A stretch of DNA of 22,048 nucleotides, taken from the IMG/VR virus record IMGVR_UViG_3300025137_000340, positions 1 through 22,048 of that record; one strand, written 5' to 3'. The stretch is from a virus. The position numbers were made by a program, and so were the translations under genes. The notes under the pieces were generated by a model, which saw only the letters and a program-made list of their open reading frames with translations, had not been told where the DNA came from and did not search any database. Numbering within the stretch: position 1 is the stretch's first letter; each line of letters opens with the position of its first letter. This document shows positions 13,113 through 21,901 of the stretch, piece after piece.

Positions 13113-13154
13113 ACCCCCGATTTCTAGCGTGATGTCTGTGATCGGGGGTTTTTT
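13113..13154 (+). terminator. Rho-independent terminator of the rightward array
   Basis: ACCCCCGAT at 13113-13121 pairs exactly with 13141-13149 (9 bp, very GC-rich), followed by six T from 13149 to 13154. The loop is 19 nt, long but workable. On the other strand no T-run follows the stem, so it should act mainly on rightward transcription. The T-run reaches into the stop codon of the leftward 2012-residue gene (13153-13155). Confidence 0.85.
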
Positions 13155-16100
13155 AAAACAGGTCGAACCCTTGATCGTACTCTCTTAGACTTTTCTCCAT
13201 GAATGGAGTGTAAGTCATACCACCACGCATCTTGCCAGTTGTTCTACCAAAAGAGGCAGCGGATCGTCGTTTAGTATCACTTGATATAATTGATTTCTCT
13301 GCACCCCTAGGTAAAGATTGATTGAACTCCATAATAGCTCTGTCTATTTCATTCACTTCTTGAAAGTCACCCTCACGTCTCGCCATGTTACGTTTACGTA
13401 GCAACTTGGTGCGCCTATTATTTATAGCTTCTTGTCTACGGCGGTTGTTTTTATTAAACTCTAGAGCTTGAATGTAGGACTGAGGTGCAAATCCAAGCCC
13501 CTGCATGACTAGGTTGTAAGGGTTAATCTCTTCTGTAATTGGATCGCCTCTACGTGTGGTGGCTCCGTCTCTGATAAAGCGTAACGTCTTCATACCGTTT
13601 CGCACGGCTGCGGGAACCATTGACTCGATGCCTCTATAAACTTCGCCGTCAAACATGTCCTTTACACCACGCTCTACGCTCAAACCAACACCCACAACAG
13701 GACCACCAAGTTGTTCTATAAGTGTCCATAAGTTGCTTTGATCTTTATCGATAATAGGTTTACGGTATAGAAGGCTGTTCATAGATATGCGGTTAGCTAT
13801 ATCTGCTCCTAGGACTTGATTTGTTAGTCCACCGTATACACCTTCACCCACTAACTTACGTGTGGCTGCTTCGAAGTCATCTTCATCTTCATCTGCAAAC
13901 ATGTTGTACAGTACACCGAAAGCTCCCATGAGGGGCATACCGCCAAGACCTGCCATAAGTCCTGTCATCGCCATAAAACCCGCCAACCCTTTCTGCGCCG
14001 CTCTACGCTCTTCAGGGTTCATGTTGCTCATAGCATCTTTCCCTAAACGCATCATCATATAGTACTTACTGATAGCAAAACGCTTAAATAAGAACAGAAT
14101 GTTACCTACACCTGTTTGTGCTACAGTAGGTCGCCCTGCTGCTGCTGTACCGCCTAGAGTAAACTCTGTATCGTTGATGGCTTGTTGAGATAACTCTCTT
14201 ATTAAATCACCATCTAAAGTTTTACCGTCTTGCTGTGCTTTTCTAGCAGATGCAAGATACGCGGCTACAAACGTAGCTTCTCTATTAAAGCGTTCTGAGT
14301 GATGAAACATAAAGCTCGTAAAGCGATTAAAAGTTTCTAAAGGGGCATCTCTACCCACTTCCAAAGCTTCTTGAGTAAACGATTGATTAAACTGCCCTTG
14401 GCTTGTAGCCATTTCTATTGCTATATCTAATCCTTCTGCCTTAAAATTTGCGGGTAGGTCATCTCCATAGTTTGCTCCCGACTTACCAGCATAACCCATA
14501 TTTATCTCTTGAGGTACTAATGTACCGTCAGCATCGGGAACCATAGCTGTACGTGTTTTAGGAGCTTTGGCAAATAATTTAGCCGCATCCGCGTAGGCTC
14601 TTGTCACATTGCTAGTGCCGTACTTACCTACAAGCACAGGCATAGAAGACATGGCTACGTCAAAGAATGTAATAAACGCGGACGAAAAGTTTAGCCCCAT
14701 AGTGTAGGCAAAACCTAGGCTGTTAGTCATTTGAGACCATCTCGGTATGTTTGGAGATTGAGCAAATTTTGCCATTTGATCCATTTTTGTCGCCATTGCA
14801 GAAGTTTCAGGATCAGTTAGATAACTTTGCTCAGAACCTTCTTGTCTAGGCTCTGCTAATTTCTTCCTAAAGCCCTCCAGCTTAGCTGCAAACTGCATCT
14901 GGACTAGCTGTCTGTTTAGATCGCGGCCCTTCTCTTTTAACATTGTGTAAGAGTCAAAGTCTATACCACCCATACCTGTAGGTGTAGTGTCTCCAATAAA
15001 ACCTCTCACATCGCCACGGCGTCTGAAATTCTGCATGAAAGATCGTTCGGGCATGGCGTCTAAGGCTAGGTCTACTAACGCTTGCATTGCTTCCTGATAA
15101 GATTCTTTTGAATCAAAAGACGATTCTCGCAGTGCCACAGTATTTAGCACGTCTTGTACAAATCTCGGAGGTGGAGTCCTTTGCAAGTCCATTGGTTTAC
15201 TAGCTTCACTAACTTCTGTAGCAGAACCACCAAGCTCTAATGCTTTGTCTCTGGCTTGCTGCGCTTTGCGTAATGTAGGGTAATACTCTATAAAGCGTTC
15301 ACCCGTTTTATTATCTGGGTTTAATGGGTCAGGTGCGGTGTATGCTAGCCTATACTTACCCTTACGTGTAAGTGGAAAATACGGACGTATTATACCCCCT
15401 TGAGACCGTAATGTTTCTGTCAACTTCTGCATAGCTGATGTTCTTGTCGCAGCATCAGGCATGGTAAGTTCTAATCTTGTCTCTAATGCTTTCATTACGT
15501 CATTATACGTATCTTGAAAATAATTTCTCATCTGTTGATATAAAGTCTTACCCTTATCATCTAGCTGATTGTATATCTCCAGTAGCTGTGCGTGGGATTG
15601 TGTTTTTTCACGACTATCAGAGTACTGCCCGACATCTGCGGATGGATCAACGCGTAAATATGTACTTCGCGGTACTAGGTTATTCAGCGCTTTCATCTGT
15701 TTTGGATTTGCTTTTTGCCAATCAAATAGATCTCTAGACAAAGAGTTTAGCATGTCTGTTTTGTTTCGAAGCGTACCGCTCATTTCGTTTATTAATATAT
15801 TTAACTCAGGTGCAAATGGTATTTTAGCCTTTGCGATATCAGACAAAATGTTCGATGGCATTAGGGATAGCAGGGCGTTCTTTAGTTTTGGGCTAACATT
15901 CTCGTTATATGCTATATCTGCGAAGTCTACCACAGTTTCGGTAGTGCTTTCAGGAACTACATTTGCCACACTACTAAGAAGTTTACCCGCTCCTGATTTT
16001 GTTGCAGCAATAAGCGGTATTCTTGGAGCGTCACGATATTCTGGAGCAGGTGCTATCATACCCTCTATTATACGATCTACTTCTGTTAGAGCAGATGATC

Positions 16101-19100
16101 GTGGTAAGCCTAACACGCGGCGCACAACCTGACGAATTGCATCGGTAAACTTATTCCATAATGTTGTGTTACCTTTATTAGTTTTGGTAAGTGCTAACAT
16201 TGTTTGAAACTGAGGATTACTTAGAGCTTCAGCAACAAACTCGTTTAGGTCTCTAGTACCGTACACTTCACCGATTTGCTCACGAGCTACGTTGAACACA
16301 TTCTCTAACTGCTTTGTAGTCGGTGAAGACTTATTAGCTATAGAAGCCGAAGTAACCGCATGGGTCATCTCATGCAGTACAGTATGTGCGTTCATACCAG
16401 TATTTCTGTTTACATAAATAGTATTTGTTTCAGGTTCAAAGAACCCCGCACCTTCGCGTCCCAATATAGGTTCAAGACTATCAAGCACTTGTACTTGTGT
16501 ATTACCTGTAGCTTTATCCAACTTAGCCGCAATCTGACGTACACGCTTTACAGGGTTAGTAGCCGCTATAGAACGTAGTACTACGCCTAGCTGATTATTC
16601 TCTAACGCATTTATCATGCTAGGTAGCAATCGTAAGTCCAATGAAGCCACTGGGTTTTCTAAAAAGAATCCATCTCTGCGACGCAATGCAGCTTCTCGTG
16701 TATCCTCACCTTTAACAGTTTTAAGTTGGAACTCTTGGGCTAACTTGTTCGAAGCTTGTTTTGGCTCGGCCTGTATTATGGCCTCCGCTCGTCTTGTTTC
16801 TATCTGAGCATCTATGCGCTCAGAAGTAGCTTTGGATTGCGGATCGCGCCCATATATTACTATGTTCTTTGACACAATAGCTTGAGCTTCGGGGGACATA
16901 TTATTTTTTACCCATATAGCTGCTAAACGTCCGTTATCCCTAGTTTGGTCTTGGTAAAATAAATACTCTGCATCAGAGTTTACATCCTCCCGTGTGTAGC
17001 TTTGTTTAGGTTGGCTAATACTTGCGGCTCCTAGGGCTGCTAGCGCATCTGCAGGTCTTCTTATTTTACTAAAAAATATGTTTGCCGCTTTTTGTTCTTT
17101 GCTTTTATTTGGGGCATCCAATAAATTTAACACAGCCTGTTTATCTGCCACTGTGGTTGTATCAACTTCTCCAGACTCAGCTTCTGTCTCAGCGAACTCT
17201 CTAGCTATTTGTGTATCTTCTCTAGATACTCCTCCCACTTTTGCTCTTGGTTGTTTAGTAAACCTTTCGTCTATTCTTTGTTGCAGTTCTTGCTGAGCTA
17301 CAGAGTTTTCGTCTTCTACAGCTTTCTTAACAGAATCAACAAGAGTGGTATCTGGAGCGACAGGGGCAGGGGGCGTAACGTCTATACCTGCAGGTATAAC
17401 TTGCCCTGCACGAGTTACGTCCATTCCCGGTTCAAGCTTGAGTGTAGGTTTCGGCACAACAGGCGCACGTAGATTAGGTGGGTCTGCTAGGGGTTTGGCG
17501 GTTTGTTGTTCTGTAGTCTTTTTAAGAGCTTCTACTTTTGCCTCTTCTTTAGCCATTTTTGCCGCTATATCAGCTTCCATTTCAGCCGTTGTCTCAGCTA
17601 TCCCGTCCATCATAGGTTTGTTTCTGGCACGTATCTCTGCCATTTCTTTATCATGCACTTGTTTTGCGGTTAGTGTATCTGACTTTGCTCCTGTTGTGTC
17701 TGTAGTATCATCAGTAGCTGGCACACTATTTCCCACTGCTCCATCGTCAGATGATACAGGCTCTTTGGCACTCTCAACTCCACTTCCAGTCCCTTCGATT
17801 CCAACCACGCTAGATCCACTACTCTCAGCGCGTCTTCCAGCTCCTGTGACGTTAGCTGTAGCTCCTGCTCCAGTAAGTAATCGCTCAATCCTATCTCCTA
17901 TATCAGGTACTTTTTTCTTTACTTGTGAGTTTTTAGCGTAACTCCGTAGTCTTTTTTGCACTTCTGGATCAGAGAGAGGTTTATTTACAATTTTTTTACG
18001 TAATGGAGCCGCTTTCATTACTCCCACTTCTGTAAGTATTTCATTAGTGACAGTGTTTAAATCTAGTTCTAATTGTTCGGATTGTTGATTTTGCTCAGTT
18101 GTTTCAGTTGTTTCAGTTACAGTGCCTTCTCCTGCGGGCTTTATCTGTTCAGGTAGGTTAGGAAACAACTCTCCTTGTGGGTCAATTTGTGTGGTATCTT
18201 TACCAGTTTTTGTAGCCGCTGTAGCACTCTGCGCTTTGTTACCTGTATTCTTTTTAGTAGTGTCTACATCTCCAGATGCAAAGGCGTCTCCAACCGCGCC
18301 GATAGTGCTTCGTGTGCCGCCACCAACTAACCCACCTGCAATAGCTGCTTCGCGGTATTCTGCAATAGCATCTTCGCTGTCAATAGGTAATCCTGCTTGA
18401 GCGCGTTCAAGCATTTGTTGTCCGACCTCAGTTAAACTTTCTGTCCCTGCACCTGTACCTAAACGAGTTGCTGTTCTCGTAAAGATGGATTTGCCCAGCG
18501 GACGTAACACACCACCTAACAAGACCTTGTCAGCTAAACCCTCAAGGGCTGCTTGTCCAAACGTAGCTCGGAGAGCCGCACCTACATCAACACTATCTAA
18601 CTCTCCCGCTGCTACTCGATCTTCTTGTCTCTGAATATTGTTACCAAATAGTATAGGCGCAGTCGCAACGCCCGCCGCTGCTACACCTGCTACAAATGGT
18701 GCTGCGGGGGCGAGGACAGCCGTTGTAGCTGCTGCGCCAAGACCTGCACCTAACTGTGGTATTTGTTCGCCAAAGACTTCTCCTGCATAGGTAAGTCCCG
18801 AACTCAGTCCTGTTACATCTGTAGACTGCATACGCTTCGGCTGTTGTAGTAGTAATTCGTTAAGTTCCTGACGGGCGTTTTCTTCTACATCAAGACCGTA
18901 GTCTTTTAGGAAATCAACCCCTGTCTCTTCGCCTATTGTACCTATCGTTTCGCCAATAGCTTCTTTAAATTGCTTCTTACCACGAGAGAACCCACGACCT
19001 AACGCAGTACCGTCATCAAATTCGGCGGTTCCCTCTCCAAATTGCTCCTCTAAACGTGCTTTTACGGCATCACGGTCTTGATTTAAAACCTGATTTATTC

Positions 19101-19191
19101 TAGCAAATTCAGTATCGCTAGGGGCATCGCCTTTAATAGTAAAATTATATGCTTGTCCTGTTTGCTGATCAATATAGTTGTATAAGCCCAT
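13153..19191 (-). CDS. Giant polyvalent virion protein with zinc-protease motif, 2012 aa
   Basis: This looks like an internal virion protein of the polyvalent type, ejected with phage DNA in some podoviruses. Residues 1-40 resemble the small N-terminal domain of such proteins. A glycine-alanine-rich hydrophobic stretch follows at about 147-183 and could insert into membranes. Residues 305-640 are a low-complexity Thr-, Ala- and Lys-rich linker with probable coiled coil. HEMTH at 940-944, with a candidate third ligand in NEFVAEAL (Glu984 or Glu988), forms a zincin-type protease site. The C-terminal part, with FKRFAISKYY near residue 1704, a hydrophobic Gly-Met segment after it and a basic tail, recalls the large polyvalent protein-associated (LPD38/PLxRFG) regions. 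It lies 10 bases after the preceding gene on the same strand. Confidence 0.85.
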   Translation of the reverse strand: MGLYNYIDQQTGQAYNFTIKGDAPSDTEFARINQVLNQDRDAVKARLEEQFGEGTAEFDDGTALGRGFSRGKKQFKEAIGETIGTIGEETGVDFLKDYGLDVEENARQELNELLLQQPKRMQSTDVTGLSSGLTYAGEVFGEQIPQLGAGLGAAATTAVLAPAAPFVAGVAAAGVATAPILFGNNIQRQEDRVAAGELDSVDVGAALRATFGQAALEGLADKVLLGGVLRPLGKSIFTRTATRLGTGAGTESLTEVGQQMLERAQAGLPIDSEDAIAEYREAAIAGGLVGGGTRSTIGAVGDAFASGDVDTTKKNTGNKAQSATAATKTGKDTTQIDPQGELFPNLPEQIKPAGEGTVTETTETTEQNQQSEQLELDLNTVTNEILTEVGVMKAAPLRKKIVNKPLSDPEVQKRLRSYAKNSQVKKKVPDIGDRIERLLTGAGATANVTGAGRRAESSGSSVVGIEGTGSGVESAKEPVSSDDGAVGNSVPATDDTTDTTGAKSDTLTAKQVHDKEMAEIRARNKPMMDGIAETTAEMEADIAAKMAKEEAKVEALKKTTEQQTAKPLADPPNLRAPVVPKPTLKLEPGMDVTRAGQVIPAGIDVTPPAPVAPDTTLVDSVKKAVEDENSVAQQELQQRIDERFTKQPRAKVGGVSREDTQIAREFAETEAESGEVDTTTVADKQAVLNLLDAPNKSKEQKAANIFFSKIRRPADALAALGAASISQPKQSYTREDVNSDAEYLFYQDQTRDNGRLAAIWVKNNMSPEAQAIVSKNIVIYGRDPQSKATSERIDAQIETRRAEAIIQAEPKQASNKLAQEFQLKTVKGEDTREAALRRRDGFFLENPVASLDLRLLPSMINALENNQLGVVLRSIAATNPVKRVRQIAAKLDKATGNTQVQVLDSLEPILGREGAGFFEPETNTIYVNRNTGMNAHTVLHEMTHAVTSASIANKSSPTTKQLENVFNVAREQIGEVYGTRDLNEFVAEALSNPQFQTMLALTKTNKGNTTLWNKFTDAIRQVVRRVLGLPRSSALTEVDRIIEGMIAPAPEYRDAPRIPLIAATKSGAGKLLSSVANVVPESTTETVVDFADIAYNENVSPKLKNALLSLMPSNILSDIAKAKIPFAPELNILINEMSGTLRNKTDMLNSLSRDLFDWQKANPKQMKALNNLVPRSTYLRVDPSADVGQYSDSREKTQSHAQLLEIYNQLDDKGKTLYQQMRNYFQDTYNDVMKALETRLELTMPDAATRTSAMQKLTETLRSQGGIIRPYFPLTRKGKYRLAYTAPDPLNPDNKTGERFIEYYPTLRKAQQARDKALELGGSATEVSEASKPMDLQRTPPPRFVQDVLNTVALRESSFDSKESYQEAMQALVDLALDAMPERSFMQNFRRRGDVRGFIGDTTPTGMGGIDFDSYTMLKEKGRDLNRQLVQMQFAAKLEGFRKKLAEPRQEGSEQSYLTDPETSAMATKMDQMAKFAQSPNIPRWSQMTNSLGFAYTMGLNFSSAFITFFDVAMSSMPVLVGKYGTSNVTRAYADAAKLFAKAPKTRTAMVPDADGTLVPQEINMGYAGKSGANYGDDLPANFKAEGLDIAIEMATSQGQFNQSFTQEALEVGRDAPLETFNRFTSFMFHHSERFNREATFVAAYLASARKAQQDGKTLDGDLIRELSQQAINDTEFTLGGTAAAGRPTVAQTGVGNILFLFKRFAISKYYMMMRLGKDAMSNMNPEERRAAQKGLAGFMAMTGLMAGLGGMPLMGAFGVLYNMFADEDEDDFEAATRKLVGEGVYGGLTNQVLGADIANRISMNSLLYRKPIIDKDQSNLWTLIEQLGGPVVGVGLSVERGVKDMFDGEVYRGIESMVPAAVRNGMKTLRFIRDGATTRRGDPITEEINPYNLVMQGLGFAPQSYIQALEFNKNNRRRQEAINNRRTKLLRKRNMARREGDFQEVNEIDRAIMEFNQSLPRGAEKSIISSDTKRRSAASFGRTTGKMRGGMTYTPFMEKSLREYDQGFDLF

Positions 19192-19201
19192 AATCCAGCC
19201 C

Positions 19202-21901
19202 TTACGTGTCTTGTATTTCTACATTTTTAGCCTTTGTTCCAGATGGCATTAAACTATCGAACATGGATTTGAGTCTTATATATTCTAGTTTTTGTGCGTT
19301 TGTCGCTTTATCGTTTTCTACATCAAACCTTAATGCGTTTAGCTTATCAATCCCGCCTAACATTTCAAAATCTGCAACCTCTCTTTCTCTAGCTGCTTTA
19401 GCCGCACTTCCATCTGCTAACTCTTTTCTTAAATCTAAGTTAGCCAGTTGTATATTCATCCCCATCTGTGACCGTAAAGCAGCGGCTTTCGAAGCATCTA
19501 TCTTTTCTTGCAATCCTAAAATAGCTATCTTGTTTCTGTTATATTCTTTCTTACGATCTTTAGAGCCTTTCAGCACATTTTTAAGCGCATTGCCCGCGCC
19601 TTCCCCAAAGGTAGCTGTAGGCTTCATAAGCTCTGCACCGAAATCAACCATCTTCATAGCTGTTTCGTACTTCTTATCTTTCTCTAGATCTTTGTAAAAA
19701 TCCATTAACGACCCAGTAGACTCCGCAGACCTAGCGTCCAACTTCCGTAACAATTCCTGTTCTGAGGTTAGAGGTGGTGTGTCATCTGGAATTATAGGTG
19801 GTGTGTCATCTGGAGTTTCTTCAGATTTTGTAGTATTCTCTGCGGCTGTTAAACTGCCTTCATCTTGCTTAGTAAAATTAACATTTTTAAATATATTAAT
19901 GGCTTCTTGTTGTTTTTTAATGTCTTCTTGTTGTTTTTTAATATTGCTATCGTATAAGTCTGAAAGCACAGGTATTTTTGCTTTACTAAGCGGCTCAGAC
20001 TTTCCAACTACATTAGCTGCAATGCTTGGGTCTCCACCCGCAGTCACACCTACAAGACCAGTCTCTAGATTTGGTGGTTGCGACAACCCTGAAGGCCCGA
20101 CTAGCATGTCTCCAAAATATCCTGCGCCATCAGATTTTCTCTTAGCAGGTGGAGCAACATTGGTTACGGGGGCAGAACCTGCTTTTACCCCTAAGATACT
20201 TGCTAAATTAGCTATTGGTTCTTTAATTAAGTCGGGGGTTGTAAGATCACCTATATTAAGCTCAGCTTTTTTAAAAGTTTCGGGAATTACGTTTCCTTCA
20301 GCGTCAACTTGATTTGAACCAATGGGTATGTTTGTAATGTCTGGGAGAAAGTTAAGCGATGGACCTACAGTATCTGTACCAATAAGCGGGAGTTTACTTG
20401 TAGGGAGAGCGCCACCCGCAGTAAAATCTTCTCCTGCTTCCTGTGCAGAATTAATAGCTTGTATAGCTTTACCACCTTGCACAAGTTCACCGCTACTATC
20501 GTATGTGTTACCTATAGGCGTTACAAAAAACTCTTTGCCATCTATAATTTGCTTAGTTGCGCCTAACTCAGAAAACTGTTCTTCTGGTGTTTTTAATTTA
20601 TCTTCAGGAGTACGGTTAAACCGATCACTACTCATAAAGTTTTTCTTTTTAAAGTAATCAGCCATTTCTGCAGCTTCTTTAATTAGCCTTTGATTTTCGC
20701 TTGGTAGATAGCCGCCCGGAACACTACCGCCTTGGTAACGTGGTTTTTGACTGGCTAGAAACCTAGTAAGGTCTGCGGGGTCAGGACTGTTATTAAACGG
20801 AACCATTAACTCATCAGGTGTAAGCCTTGATTTTTCAAATTCTGCTTTAACGTTTGCTTGACGAGCTTGTTCTGCTTGTTGTCGCATAAGACCTAGAGCA
20901 TTATAAGGTTGTCCTGTTGTTGGATCTATGACAGCAGGGTCTCTCATAGCGGGCATAGTCATCATTGATGGTGGGAAGACAGTTTTAGCGTTAGCTGCAG
21001 TTGGAGCTAGTTGATTACTAGTAGGTTCAAAACCACGAATCCCTGATTTAAGAATCCCTGATTCAAACTCAGGCTTAACAGTTTCAGCCATTGATGCTAT
21101 TGGAGCTAGTTGACTAGCGGTAGGTTCAAAGCCACGACTTGGAGAAACAACAGTTTCAGCCGTTGCCGCTACTGGAGCTAGTTGACTAGCGGTAGGTTCA
21201 AAGCCACGACTTGGAGAAACAACAGTTTCAGCCGTTGCCGCTACTGGAGCTAGTTGATTACTAGTAGGTTCAAAACCACGAAGTCCTGATTGTTCTAATA
21301 CGCCGCTGGCCCTTTTAGCACCTTCTTTTACTTCATCTCCATATTCACCTGCAAGTGCTTTAGATAAAACCTCACGCTGTAGTTCAGGGCCAAGTTCACC
21401 TGCGATTGCAGCTTGAACCACTTGTCTTTGTGCTTCCTTCCCATAACTACCCTTTAATGACAATTCTGTAATAGCGGGTTGTAAAGTATTTGTAATGCTA
21501 TTTGGGTTCGCTCGCGCTTCTGCCATAATCTTGTCAATTTGTTCTTGAACACTACCTGCCTCCTGCATCTTCACTACACCACCTGTAGCCATACGTGTGG
21601 GTTGTTTCGGCATCATTGCAGCAATACCTGTGTTTTCAGCCATACTTGTTTTTGGAGCCATAGCTTGTGCCATCTGCGCTACTCCACCCATAGGCATACC
21701 TGCCGCTGTAACGGCCTCTTGTGCTACAGTCGGAGTGTTAGCGGCTTCGGCACGGGCTTGCTCTGTCTGCATTCTCTTTCTACGACTTAGCTCACTTAGG
21801 ACTAGGAACTGAGGTACGTTACCGGACGGCCTTTGCATTTCTGTGACAAGTTGTTGTTGTGAAAAGTTCTTTAGATCGTCTTGTACCTTTAGAATATTCA
21901 T
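19202..21901 (-). CDS. Repeat-rich phage protein, probably structural, 899 aa
   Basis: The N-terminus (LKNFSQQQLVTEMQ, then QFLVLSELSRRKRM) matches a type I know from uncultured marine phage contigs, where it lies among virion genes; its exact role is unknown. A glycine-rich ATGGVVKMQ motif follows at 105-113. Residues 141-191 hold three degenerate 17-residue repeats. Residues 208-312 hold four RGFEPT-type repeats of 24, 24, 33 and 24 residues. Later there are short tandem copies DDTPP (near 700) and KKQQE-(D/A)-I. The C-terminal 200 residues are helical and charged. The start overlaps the upstream stop by one base (TAATG on the minus strand). Its place next to the giant protein suggests both are virion components. 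Confidence 0.8.
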   Translation of the reverse strand: MNILKVQDDLKNFSQQQLVTEMQRPSGNVPQFLVLSELSRRKRMQTEQARAEAANTPTVAQEAVTAAGMPMGGVAQMAQAMAPKTSMAENTGIAAMMPKQPTRMATGGVVKMQEAGSVQEQIDKIMAEARANPNSITNTLQPAITELSLKGSYGKEAQRQVVQAAIAGELGPELQREVLSKALAGEYGDEVKEGAKRASGVLEQSGLRGFEPTSNQLAPVAATAETVVSPSRGFEPTASQLAPVAATAETVVSPSRGFEPTASQLAPIASMAETVKPEFESGILKSGIRGFEPTSNQLAPTAANAKTVFPPSMMTMPAMRDPAVIDPTTGQPYNALGLMRQQAEQARQANVKAEFEKSRLTPDELMVPFNNSPDPADLTRFLASQKPRYQGGSVPGGYLPSENQRLIKEAAEMADYFKKKNFMSSDRFNRTPEDKLKTPEEQFSELGATKQIIDGKEFFVTPIGNTYDSSGELVQGGKAIQAINSAQEAGEDFTAGGALPTSKLPLIGTDTVGPSLNFLPDITNIPIGSNQVDAEGNVIPETFKKAELNIGDLTTPDLIKEPIANLASILGVKAGSAPVTNVAPPAKRKSDGAGYFGDMLVGPSGLSQPPNLETGLVGVTAGGDPSIAANVVGKSEPLSKAKIPVLSDLYDSNIKKQQEDIKKQQEAINIFKNVNFTKQDEGSLTAAENTTKSEETPDDTPPIIPDDTPPLTSEQELLRKLDARSAESTGSLMDFYKDLEKDKKYETAMKMVDFGAELMKPTATFGEGAGNALKNVLKGSKDRKKEYNRNKIAILGLQEKIDASKAAALRSQMGMNIQLANLDLRKELADGSAAKAAREREVADFEMLGGIDKLNALRFDVENDKATNAQKLEYIRLKSMFDSLMPSGTKAKNVEIQDT
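19772..19814 (-). repeat. Two 19-nt direct copies encoding DDTPP
   Basis: 19772-19790 and 19796-19814 are identical, 24 bases apart, giving two DDTPP copies in the protein. The near-identity at DNA level points to recent slippage or duplication. Confidence 0.85.
19903..19942 (-). repeat. Two 19-nt direct copies encoding a KKQQE heptad
   Basis: 19903-19921 and 19924-19942 are identical with a 21-base period, so each copy adds exactly seven residues (KKQQEDI, KKQQEAI). A seven-residue step keeps a coiled-coil phase. Confidence 0.85.
20966..21280 (-). repeat. Four tandem coding repeats (RGFEPT units)
   Basis: The region encodes residues 208-312 as four units beginning RGFEPT, with QLAP inside each. 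Three units are 24 residues (72 bases) and one is 33, the extra residues coming from a further small duplication (12-nt copies at 21037 and 21052). The two middle units share an 85-nt exact match (21101-21185 and 21173-21257). Confidence 0.92.
21329..21481 (-). repeat. Three degenerate 17-residue repeats
   Basis: Residues 141-157, 158-174 and 175-191 align as three 17-residue units. All begin with Gln, have a helix, then Gly at position 11 and a (Y/L)G-x-E close. They are conserved at protein level only, so they are older than the RGFEPT repeats beside them. Confidence 0.65.

What the first reader, a model, noticed from the sequence alone, without database searches (positions are those of the whole stretch)
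13153..19191. Zinc-protease motif inside a giant ejection-type protein
HEMTH at residues 940-944 with a downstream Glu (984 or 988) gives all expected ligands of a zincin. It sits between a membrane-active-looking N-terminal part and a polyvalent C-terminal part. A protease delivered into the cell could cleave host defence or envelope proteins, or mature the giant protein itself. I know such domains in polyvalent phage proteins, but the target here is unknown.
Basis: partly seen in the sequence, partly recalled or inferred. Interest (0 to 1): 0.55.

Follow-up and report, generated by a model that had tools for sequence, protein, structure and literature searches.

The report
Zinc protease in phage ejection protein
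A virus of bacteria carries a giant protein, built like those that such viruses push into the cell together with their DNA, and it contains an intact-looking protein-cutting zinc enzyme of a kind already predicted for such proteins, whose target is unknown.

Summary
Confirmed, and mostly a known kind, with one sharper point. The 2012-residue minus-strand ORF (13153-19191) has HEMTH at residues 940-944; 0.0017 HExxH motifs are expected by composition. AlphaFold2 gives a zincin layout; the best structural match is the HExxH domain C1 of phage N4 virion RNA polymerase, then anthrax lethal factor's protease domain. The third ligand is Glu984: H940, E941, H944 and E984 are invariant in 16 divergent proteins, position 988 is Glu in 12. 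In a search with the region downstream, 76 of 80 loci reach the domain and all 76 keep HExxH plus Glu. In a near relative the giant gene follows a DNA-ejection gene and a homologue of the window's P0002; P0001 and P0002 contain no cysteine, like proven ejection proteins. LPD39 and PLxRFG regions follow the zincin. Zincins in polyvalent phage proteins were published in 2017. New here: profiles link the domain to the large core proteins of phiKMV and PhiM1, whose region in PhiM1 was described as endolysin-like. Catalysis, target and timing are untested.

The parts
13153..19191 (-). P0001, 2012-aa giant protein: virion-type N-terminal part, variable linker, zincin, LPD39, PLxRFG region
16042..16644 (-). 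zincin domain, residues about 850-1050
   Evidence: model of residues 836-1100, mean pLDDT 81.7 and block means mostly 83-98 for residues 846-1040; structural matches
16360..16374 (-). HEMTH, residues 940-944: two His ligands and the general-base Glu941
   Evidence: invariant in 16 of 16 divergent proteins
16240..16242 (-). Glu984, third zinc ligand
   Evidence: invariant in 16 of 16; lies on the next conserved helix but one, model 147-156
16228..16230 (-).
   Evidence: Glu in 12 of 16; S, G, W, Y in the rest
18145..19035 (-). N-terminal part, residues 53-349, like a virion structural protein; hydrophobic Ala-rich stretch 153-183
   Evidence: phrog_6958 E 1.9e-8; hydropathy
17122..18291 (-). 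variable linker, residues 301-690
   Evidence: identity to the nearest relatives falls to 0.38-0.42 here against about 0.7 or more in the domains on either side, L001 excepted
15442..15888 (-). LPD39, residues 1102-1250
   Evidence: Pfam PF18858 E 2.5e-12
13234..15384 (-). PLxRFG region, residues 1270-1986; DarB-like PHROG at 1625-2004
   Evidence: NF032893 E 3e-89; phrog_10089 E 7e-42
19202..21901 (-). P0002, 899 aa, gene directly upstream; no Cys, His or Trp
   Evidence: a homologue precedes the giant gene in 39 of 50 relatives with enough upstream DNA

Best explanation
P0001 is the large ejection (pilot) protein of a short-tailed phage, comparable to T7 gp16, phiKMV gp37, PhiM1 gp48 and N4 gp50, made late, stored in the capsid and pushed into the Gram-negative-type envelope ahead of or with the DNA. 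Residues about 850-1050 are a zinc metallopeptidase: His940, His944 and Glu984 hold the zinc, Glu941 activates water. Shown: motif, conservation, predicted fold, gene order, absence of cysteine. Inferred: zinc binding, catalysis, ejection of this particular protein. Proposed working: the enzyme is silent while packed or threaded, refolds after delivery, and then cuts a protein at or inside the cell envelope. A host or envelope protein cut in trans is my first choice (about 0.45), cutting of itself after delivery to free the LPD39/PLxRFG part second (about 0.3), other roles share the rest.
For: Zincin layout and match to N4 C1 (Z 7.9, 173 aligned, rmsd 4.2) and lethal factor (Z 5.7). Active-site quartet invariant in 16 of 16 divergent proteins, and in 76 of 76 loci found through the downstream region; the general base Glu941 being invariant argues for catalysis and not only for a structural metal site. 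The window-family profile alone, which holds no T7-type member, finds two solved ejection proteins: 9sfn_G E 1.5e-9 and 8vb2_A (PhiM1 gp48) E 1.6e-5. Same gene order: ejection protein, P0002 homologue, giant, with terminase, portal and head genes on the same strand of that record. No Cys in 2911 aa of P0001+P0002 against 52 in 3900 aa of the 15 plus-strand ORFs; ejection proteins of T7, P22, phiKMV and N4 have 1 Cys in 10280 aa, 43 other head, tail and packaging proteins of these phages 119 in 17064. A relative with the domain, Cellulophaga phi14:2 gp076, is a virion protein by MS/MS according to its record. Against cutting before ejection: N4 gp50 showed no degradation (passage).
Against: No zinc, activity or virion measurement exists for this protein. 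Foldseek against the PDB gave nothing at E <= 0.001 for either model, and Z 7.9 lies in the range the tool calls common for unmatched models. Pfam peptidase matches of the window are below cut-off, and non-peptidase families match as many members as some of them (20 of 48 for a type III secretion family). T7 gp16 does not match the zincin profiles. The LPD39/PLxRFG core found no PDB relative by sequence. Vibrio phage douglas has the LPD39 core without any HExxH, so the enzyme is not indispensable to that core. Choice between trans and self cutting rests on inference.
Confidence: 0.72

Rival explanations
1. Self-processing protease: the zincin cuts P0001 itself, before packaging or after delivery, to free the C-terminal effector-like part.
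For: A long variable linker (301-690) precedes the enzyme. Iyer et al. propose this for polyvalent proteins and point to P1 DdrB, which is processed before packaging (section read).
Against: N4 gp50 stays whole; the PhiM1 core protein is modelled in the virion as one chain across this region (chain range 290-864). No proline-proline site enrichment in linkers: 141 found, 214.7 expected in 74 proteins. One conserved island in the linker, 674-686, is only a lead.
Confidence: 0.3
2. Metal-site scaffold or pseudo-enzyme: the fold serves assembly of the internal core, and proteolysis is lost.
For: In N4 the C-terminal region holding this domain is needed for packaging (Iyer et al.), a structural role.
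Against: The general base Glu941 is invariant in all 16 lineages compared and in the 76 of 76 loci, which a structural metal site would not require.
Confidence: 0.15
3. Cell-wall enzyme: the domain takes the place of the lytic transglycosylase of T7 gp16 and opens peptidoglycan; 'endolysin-like' would then be right.
For: Pfam finds no transglycosylase in P0001; PhiM1 authors called this region endolysin/exotransglycosidase-like from BLASTP and DALI.
Against: A Limnohabitans phage relative has both an SLT transglycosylase (16-118) and the zincin (609) in one protein; the fold relatives found are protein-cutting; phiKMV gp37 has no Pfam cell-wall domain.
Confidence: 0.08
4. Chance HExxH in a helical protein.
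For: T7 gp16 carries an HERLH at 559 that matches neither zincin profile, so chance motifs do occur.
Against: Expected 0.0017 per protein, conserved quartet, matching fold.
Confidence: 0.02

Closest known systems
Zincin-like MPTase domains of polyvalent phage proteins (Iyer et al. 2017, PMC5512222)
   Same: three strands, HExxH helix, later Glu helix; joined to an LPD (LPD39) in a giant late phage protein
   Different: no Pfam or NCBIfam model reaches its cut-off on the window's domain; placement among the paper's 12 clades not tested
Phage N4 virion RNA polymerase gp50, domain C1 (2124-2375)
   Same: fold match Z 7.9-8.2 exactly over C1; HExxH and Glu; ejected; no cysteine
   Different: P0001 has no polymerase domain at E <= 1 in Pfam
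Large core proteins of phiKMV (gp37; 9sfn_G is identical by eye in the printed stretch) and PhiM1 (gp48, 8vb2_A)
   Same: significant profile matches over the zincin with HExxH and Glu; last of three ejection genes in phiKMV
   Different: 1337 and 1263 aa, no LPD39/PLxRFG match seen in phiKMV gp37 by Pfam; PhiM1 authors named the region endolysin-like
T7 gp16
   Same: third of three internal virion genes; no cysteine
   Different: has an SLT transglycosylase and no zincin match
DarB-like / PLxRFG proteins of Bcep22-like podoviruses
   Same: C-terminal region; a DarB-like protein is virion-associated by mass spectrometry in phage JC1 (passages)
   Different: LASTA and POI1126 carry an HExxH that the family profile does not recognise; douglas carries none

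Membership tests
zincin metallopeptidase | HExxH on a helix | tested here: met
   HEMTH 940-944 on model helix 100-116
zincin metallopeptidase | third ligand downstream (Glu), conserved | tested here: met
   Glu984 invariant in 16 of 16
zincin metallopeptidase | fold | tested here: met
   layout; N4 C1 Z 7.9, lethal factor Z 5.7; Foldseek E-values weak
zincin metallopeptidase | zinc binding and proteolysis | not testable with these tools
   needs protein
polyvalent-protein MPTase | helix, three strands, HExxH helix, Glu helix, in a giant protein with LPD domains | tested here: met
polyvalent-protein MPTase | falls in one of the published clades | not tested
   the paper's alignment files are not held
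T7 gp16-type large ejection protein | last gene of an ejection cassette among late genes | tested here: met
   in L004's record; the window itself ends before the first gene
T7 gp16-type large ejection protein | lytic transglycosylase domain | tested here: not met
   no SLT at E <= 1 in Pfam; also absent by Pfam from phiKMV gp37
T7 gp16-type large ejection protein | core fold | tested here: inconclusive
   8vb2_A Z 9.4 but rmsd 20; T7 core Z 5.0 and 4.8
T7 gp16-type large ejection protein | presence in virion and ejection | not testable with these tools
   indirect only: no cysteine
N4-type virion RNA polymerase | RNA polymerase domain | tested here: not met
   no such Pfam match in P0001, found in N4 gp50
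lethal factor-type peptidase (Pfam ATLF) | curated family score | tested here: inconclusive
   18 of 48 members match at E <= 0.1, not the window

The most novel reading that the evidence does not exclude
A catalytically intact zincin is a shared cargo module of the largest ejected protein in several unrelated-looking lineages of short-tailed phages (this marine PLxRFG group, phiKMV- and PhiM1-type phages, N4-like phages, crAss-like phages), so these phages inject a protease as part of the ejection core; the 'endolysin' label on the PhiM1 region and on phiKMV gp37 would then be wrong.
Probability: 0.55. Interest if true: 0.62.

Novelty: new member of a known kind. Interest (0 to 1): 0.42.

Why it matters
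What the large ejection proteins do once inside the envelope is an open question. If a protease is a standing part of them, two solved cores (phiKMV-type 9sfn, PhiM1 8vb2) already hold the site, and replacing one glutamate in a laboratory phage would show whether proteolysis is needed at entry. Lack of cysteine, known for N4 virion RNA polymerase (PMC3915230, passage), here extends to the ejection proteins of four phages and could help to recognise ejected proteins in metagenomes.

Tried and rejected
Glu988 as ligand: rejected, 12 of 16 only. Pro-Pro endopeptidase-like self cutting in the linker: fewer PP pairs than expected. Common descent of the LPD39/PLxRFG core with solved cores by sequence: no match; by fold inconclusive. 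First profile (8 rows) against the PDB gave only E 0.0046 and 0.1, with single-stretch values of 1.1 and 2.6; the larger profile made it firm. The 16-row profile contains T7-type members and a Vibrio vRNAP, so its E-values for phiKMV, PhiM1 and N4 are not independent. The Vibrio K479 vRNAP row came in at tblastn E 0.07 and is not found by the family profile; the independent N4 link is the fold match. The count of 88 of 88 is biased: most of those loci were fetched with patterns from the motif itself, so the count from the downstream search is the one to use; it is capped at 80 of 329 and many are contigs seen before; by reading contig names, 27 of the 80 were not, and 23 of these reach the domain, all 23 with both motifs. 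P0002 has no relative in the phage collection, and 11 of 50 upstream ORFs do not match it. Genome contigs gave one relative. Papers: no passage naming a zincin in phiKMV- or PhiM1-type core proteins was met in searches (listings, capped) and the terms sought in PMC11440229; this is not proof of absence. Absence of 8vb2 from the domain-only list means nothing, as that list is preselected.
Full report
What is there. The window is a 22,048-base virus record, linear, probably a fragment. Its plus strand holds replication-type genes; the minus strand holds P0002 (19202-21901, 899 aa) followed by P0001 (13153-19191, 2012 aa). P0001 has HEMTH at 940-944 and Glu at 984 and 988. Seven His in all, none expected to make HExxH by chance: 0.0017 by composition, 10 of 5000 shuffles.

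Domains. Residues 53-349 match a virion structural PHROG (1.9e-8), 1625-2004 a DarB-like one (7e-42). LPD39 lies at 1102-1250 (2.5e-12) and the PLxRFG model at 1270-1986 (3e-89). For the zincin itself Pfam gives only matches below cut-off: Tox-MPTase4 and DUF6782. Over the 48 members of the domain alignment, 40 match DUF6782, 30 Tox-MPTase4, 18 ATLF and 6 SprT-like at E <= 0.1, but 20 also match a type III secretion family, so these are hints only.

Conservation. Twelve relatives found with peptides from other parts of the protein all keep HEMxH and both Glu. Eighty-eight distinct loci keep HExxH and the first Glu; this is biased by how 75 of them were found. A search through the downstream region removes that bias: 76 of 80 loci reach the domain and all 76 have HExxH and Glu, four are too short. 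tblastn of the domain against 50,697 phage records gave 76 records at E <= 1 (40 listed): Rhizobium TM3_14A 5e-7, crAss-like cr130_1 8e-8, Cellulophaga phi14:2 2e-5, Limnohabitans YIMV22061 2e-4, Pseudomonas ErraM 4e-4, and weakly Vibrio K479 vRNAP 0.07. All six carry HExxH there. Aligned with ten proteins of the window's family (one from a bacterial MAG contig, L094), only five columns are invariant: H940, E941, H944, E984, F985. Position 988 is E in 12 of 16 and 936 is H in 11 of 16 (rows counted from the printed columns).

Fold. The model of 836-1100 (48 sequences) has mean pLDDT 81.7, with strands 64-68, 81-84, 89-93, HExxH helix 100-116 and Glu helix 147-156, the order that Iyer et al. 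describe. Second-look structural alignment puts N4 vRNAP 2124-2367 first (Z 7.9, rmsd 4.2, 173 aligned), then lethal factor (Z 5.7) and, lower, PPEP peptidases (about Z 4). N4 authors name exactly 2124-2375 as C1 with a conserved HExxH (passage). Foldseek alone was weak in the PDB (best E 0.063); in the viral library 17 matches reach E <= 0.001, among them a Pseudomonas 'internal core protein' (1.8e-5), Bordetella 'internal protein D' (1.4e-4) and a Vibrio virion RNA polymerase (4.3e-4). The second model, 836-2012 (pLDDT 75.8), puts PhiM1 gp48 first (Z 9.4, rmsd 20, 246 aligned), N4 next (8.2), and T7 core protein at 5.0; outside the zincin I count this as inconclusive.

Link to solved ejection cores. 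The family profile without any T7-type member finds 9sfn_G 'internal virion protein' at 1.5e-9 and PhiM1 gp48 at 1.6e-5. The printed stretch of 9sfn_G is identical by eye to phiKMV gp37, which the profile also finds, E 1.1e-13 in a set of 12 proteins. The wider profile adds a third, 23sg_S gp10 (2e-6), and reaches lethal factor (4.6e-4), N4 vRNAP (6.1e-4) and IrrE (0.0093). The PhiM1 paper describes residues 268-528 of this protein as endolysin/exotransglycosidase-like and the terms protease, HExxH and metallo do not occur in its text; my match is to 349-525. PhiM1's own HExxH and Glu are visible in the alignment.

Setting. In the record of L004 (69% identical) the order is: protein like a DNA ejection protein (phrog_4287, 6.3e-11), P0002 homologue, giant, with terminase, portal and head genes on the same strand. 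All 50 relatives with at least 2.5 kb upstream have an ORF of 150 aa or more ending by the giant; 39 of these 50 ORFs match P0002. The window ends before the place of the ejection gene. T7, P22, phiKMV and N4 show three ejection genes in a row.

No cysteine. P0001 and P0002: 0 in 2911 aa; the 15 plus-strand ORFs: 52 in 3900. Cassette of L004's record: 0 in 3171, 29 other late ORFs 23 in 7713, chance of zero 7.7e-5. Distinct zincin-to-end parts of relatives: 0 in 98,937 aa, 78 parts; whole frames: 78 of 88 with none. Ejection proteins of T7, P22, phiKMV and N4: 1 in 10,280 against 119 in 17,064 for 43 other head, tail and packaging proteins, which I chose from the annotation. For N4-type vRNAP the absence of cysteine and its meaning for passage through the tail are in print (passage).

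How it may work. I take P0001 to be the largest ejection protein. A His-His-Glu site needs no cysteine and can re-form after passage; this is inference. N4 gp50 stays whole and PhiM1 gp48 is modelled as one chain in the virion, so cutting before ejection is unlikely by analogy; cutting after delivery, of a host protein or of itself, remains. Iyer et al. listed the same choices in 2017.

Verdict. The link to the phiKMV/PhiM1 cores is the part I have not found in print, within the searches named in Tried and rejected.

Papers seen: PMC5512222 (passages and section 8), PMC11440229 (abstract, outline, section 7, first part of section 9, passages), PMC12633501, PMC9144972, PMC9024508, PMC8954989, PMC3915230, PMC8472413 (passages only).

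Noticed in passing
window 13153-21901; L185-L188 ejection genes: Ejection proteins of T7, P22, phiKMV and N4 have 1 Cys in 10,280 aa, far fewer than other structural proteins of these phages; the same holds for the window's two proteins. Known for N4 vRNAP only, as far as I saw.
   Followed up: partly
L007 giant protein, residues 482-539: A stretch like the FtsK gamma DNA-binding domain (E 3.1e-4, below cut-off) in the longer N-terminal part of the 2.7-kb-larger relatives.
   Followed up: no
window 19202-21901: P0002 has no Cys, His or Trp in 899 aa and repeats of a short segment near residues 206-310 (read); only its first 120 residues or so are conserved.
   Followed up: no
L097 (Rhizobium phage TM3_14A) and L182 (Vibrio phage douglas): Giant proteins of the same kind carry an inorganic pyrophosphatase domain (Pfam InPase, E 2.2e-48 and 2.8e-55).
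   Followed up: no
window residues 674-686 of P0001 (17134-17172): A short conserved island, GEVDTTTVADKQA, inside the otherwise variable linker; could be a cleavage site or the start of the folded part.
   Followed up: no
L187 phiKMV gp37: Annotated 'internal virion protein with endolysin domain', but Pfam finds no cell-wall domain in it; the zincin is the only enzyme-like part recognised here.
   Followed up: partly
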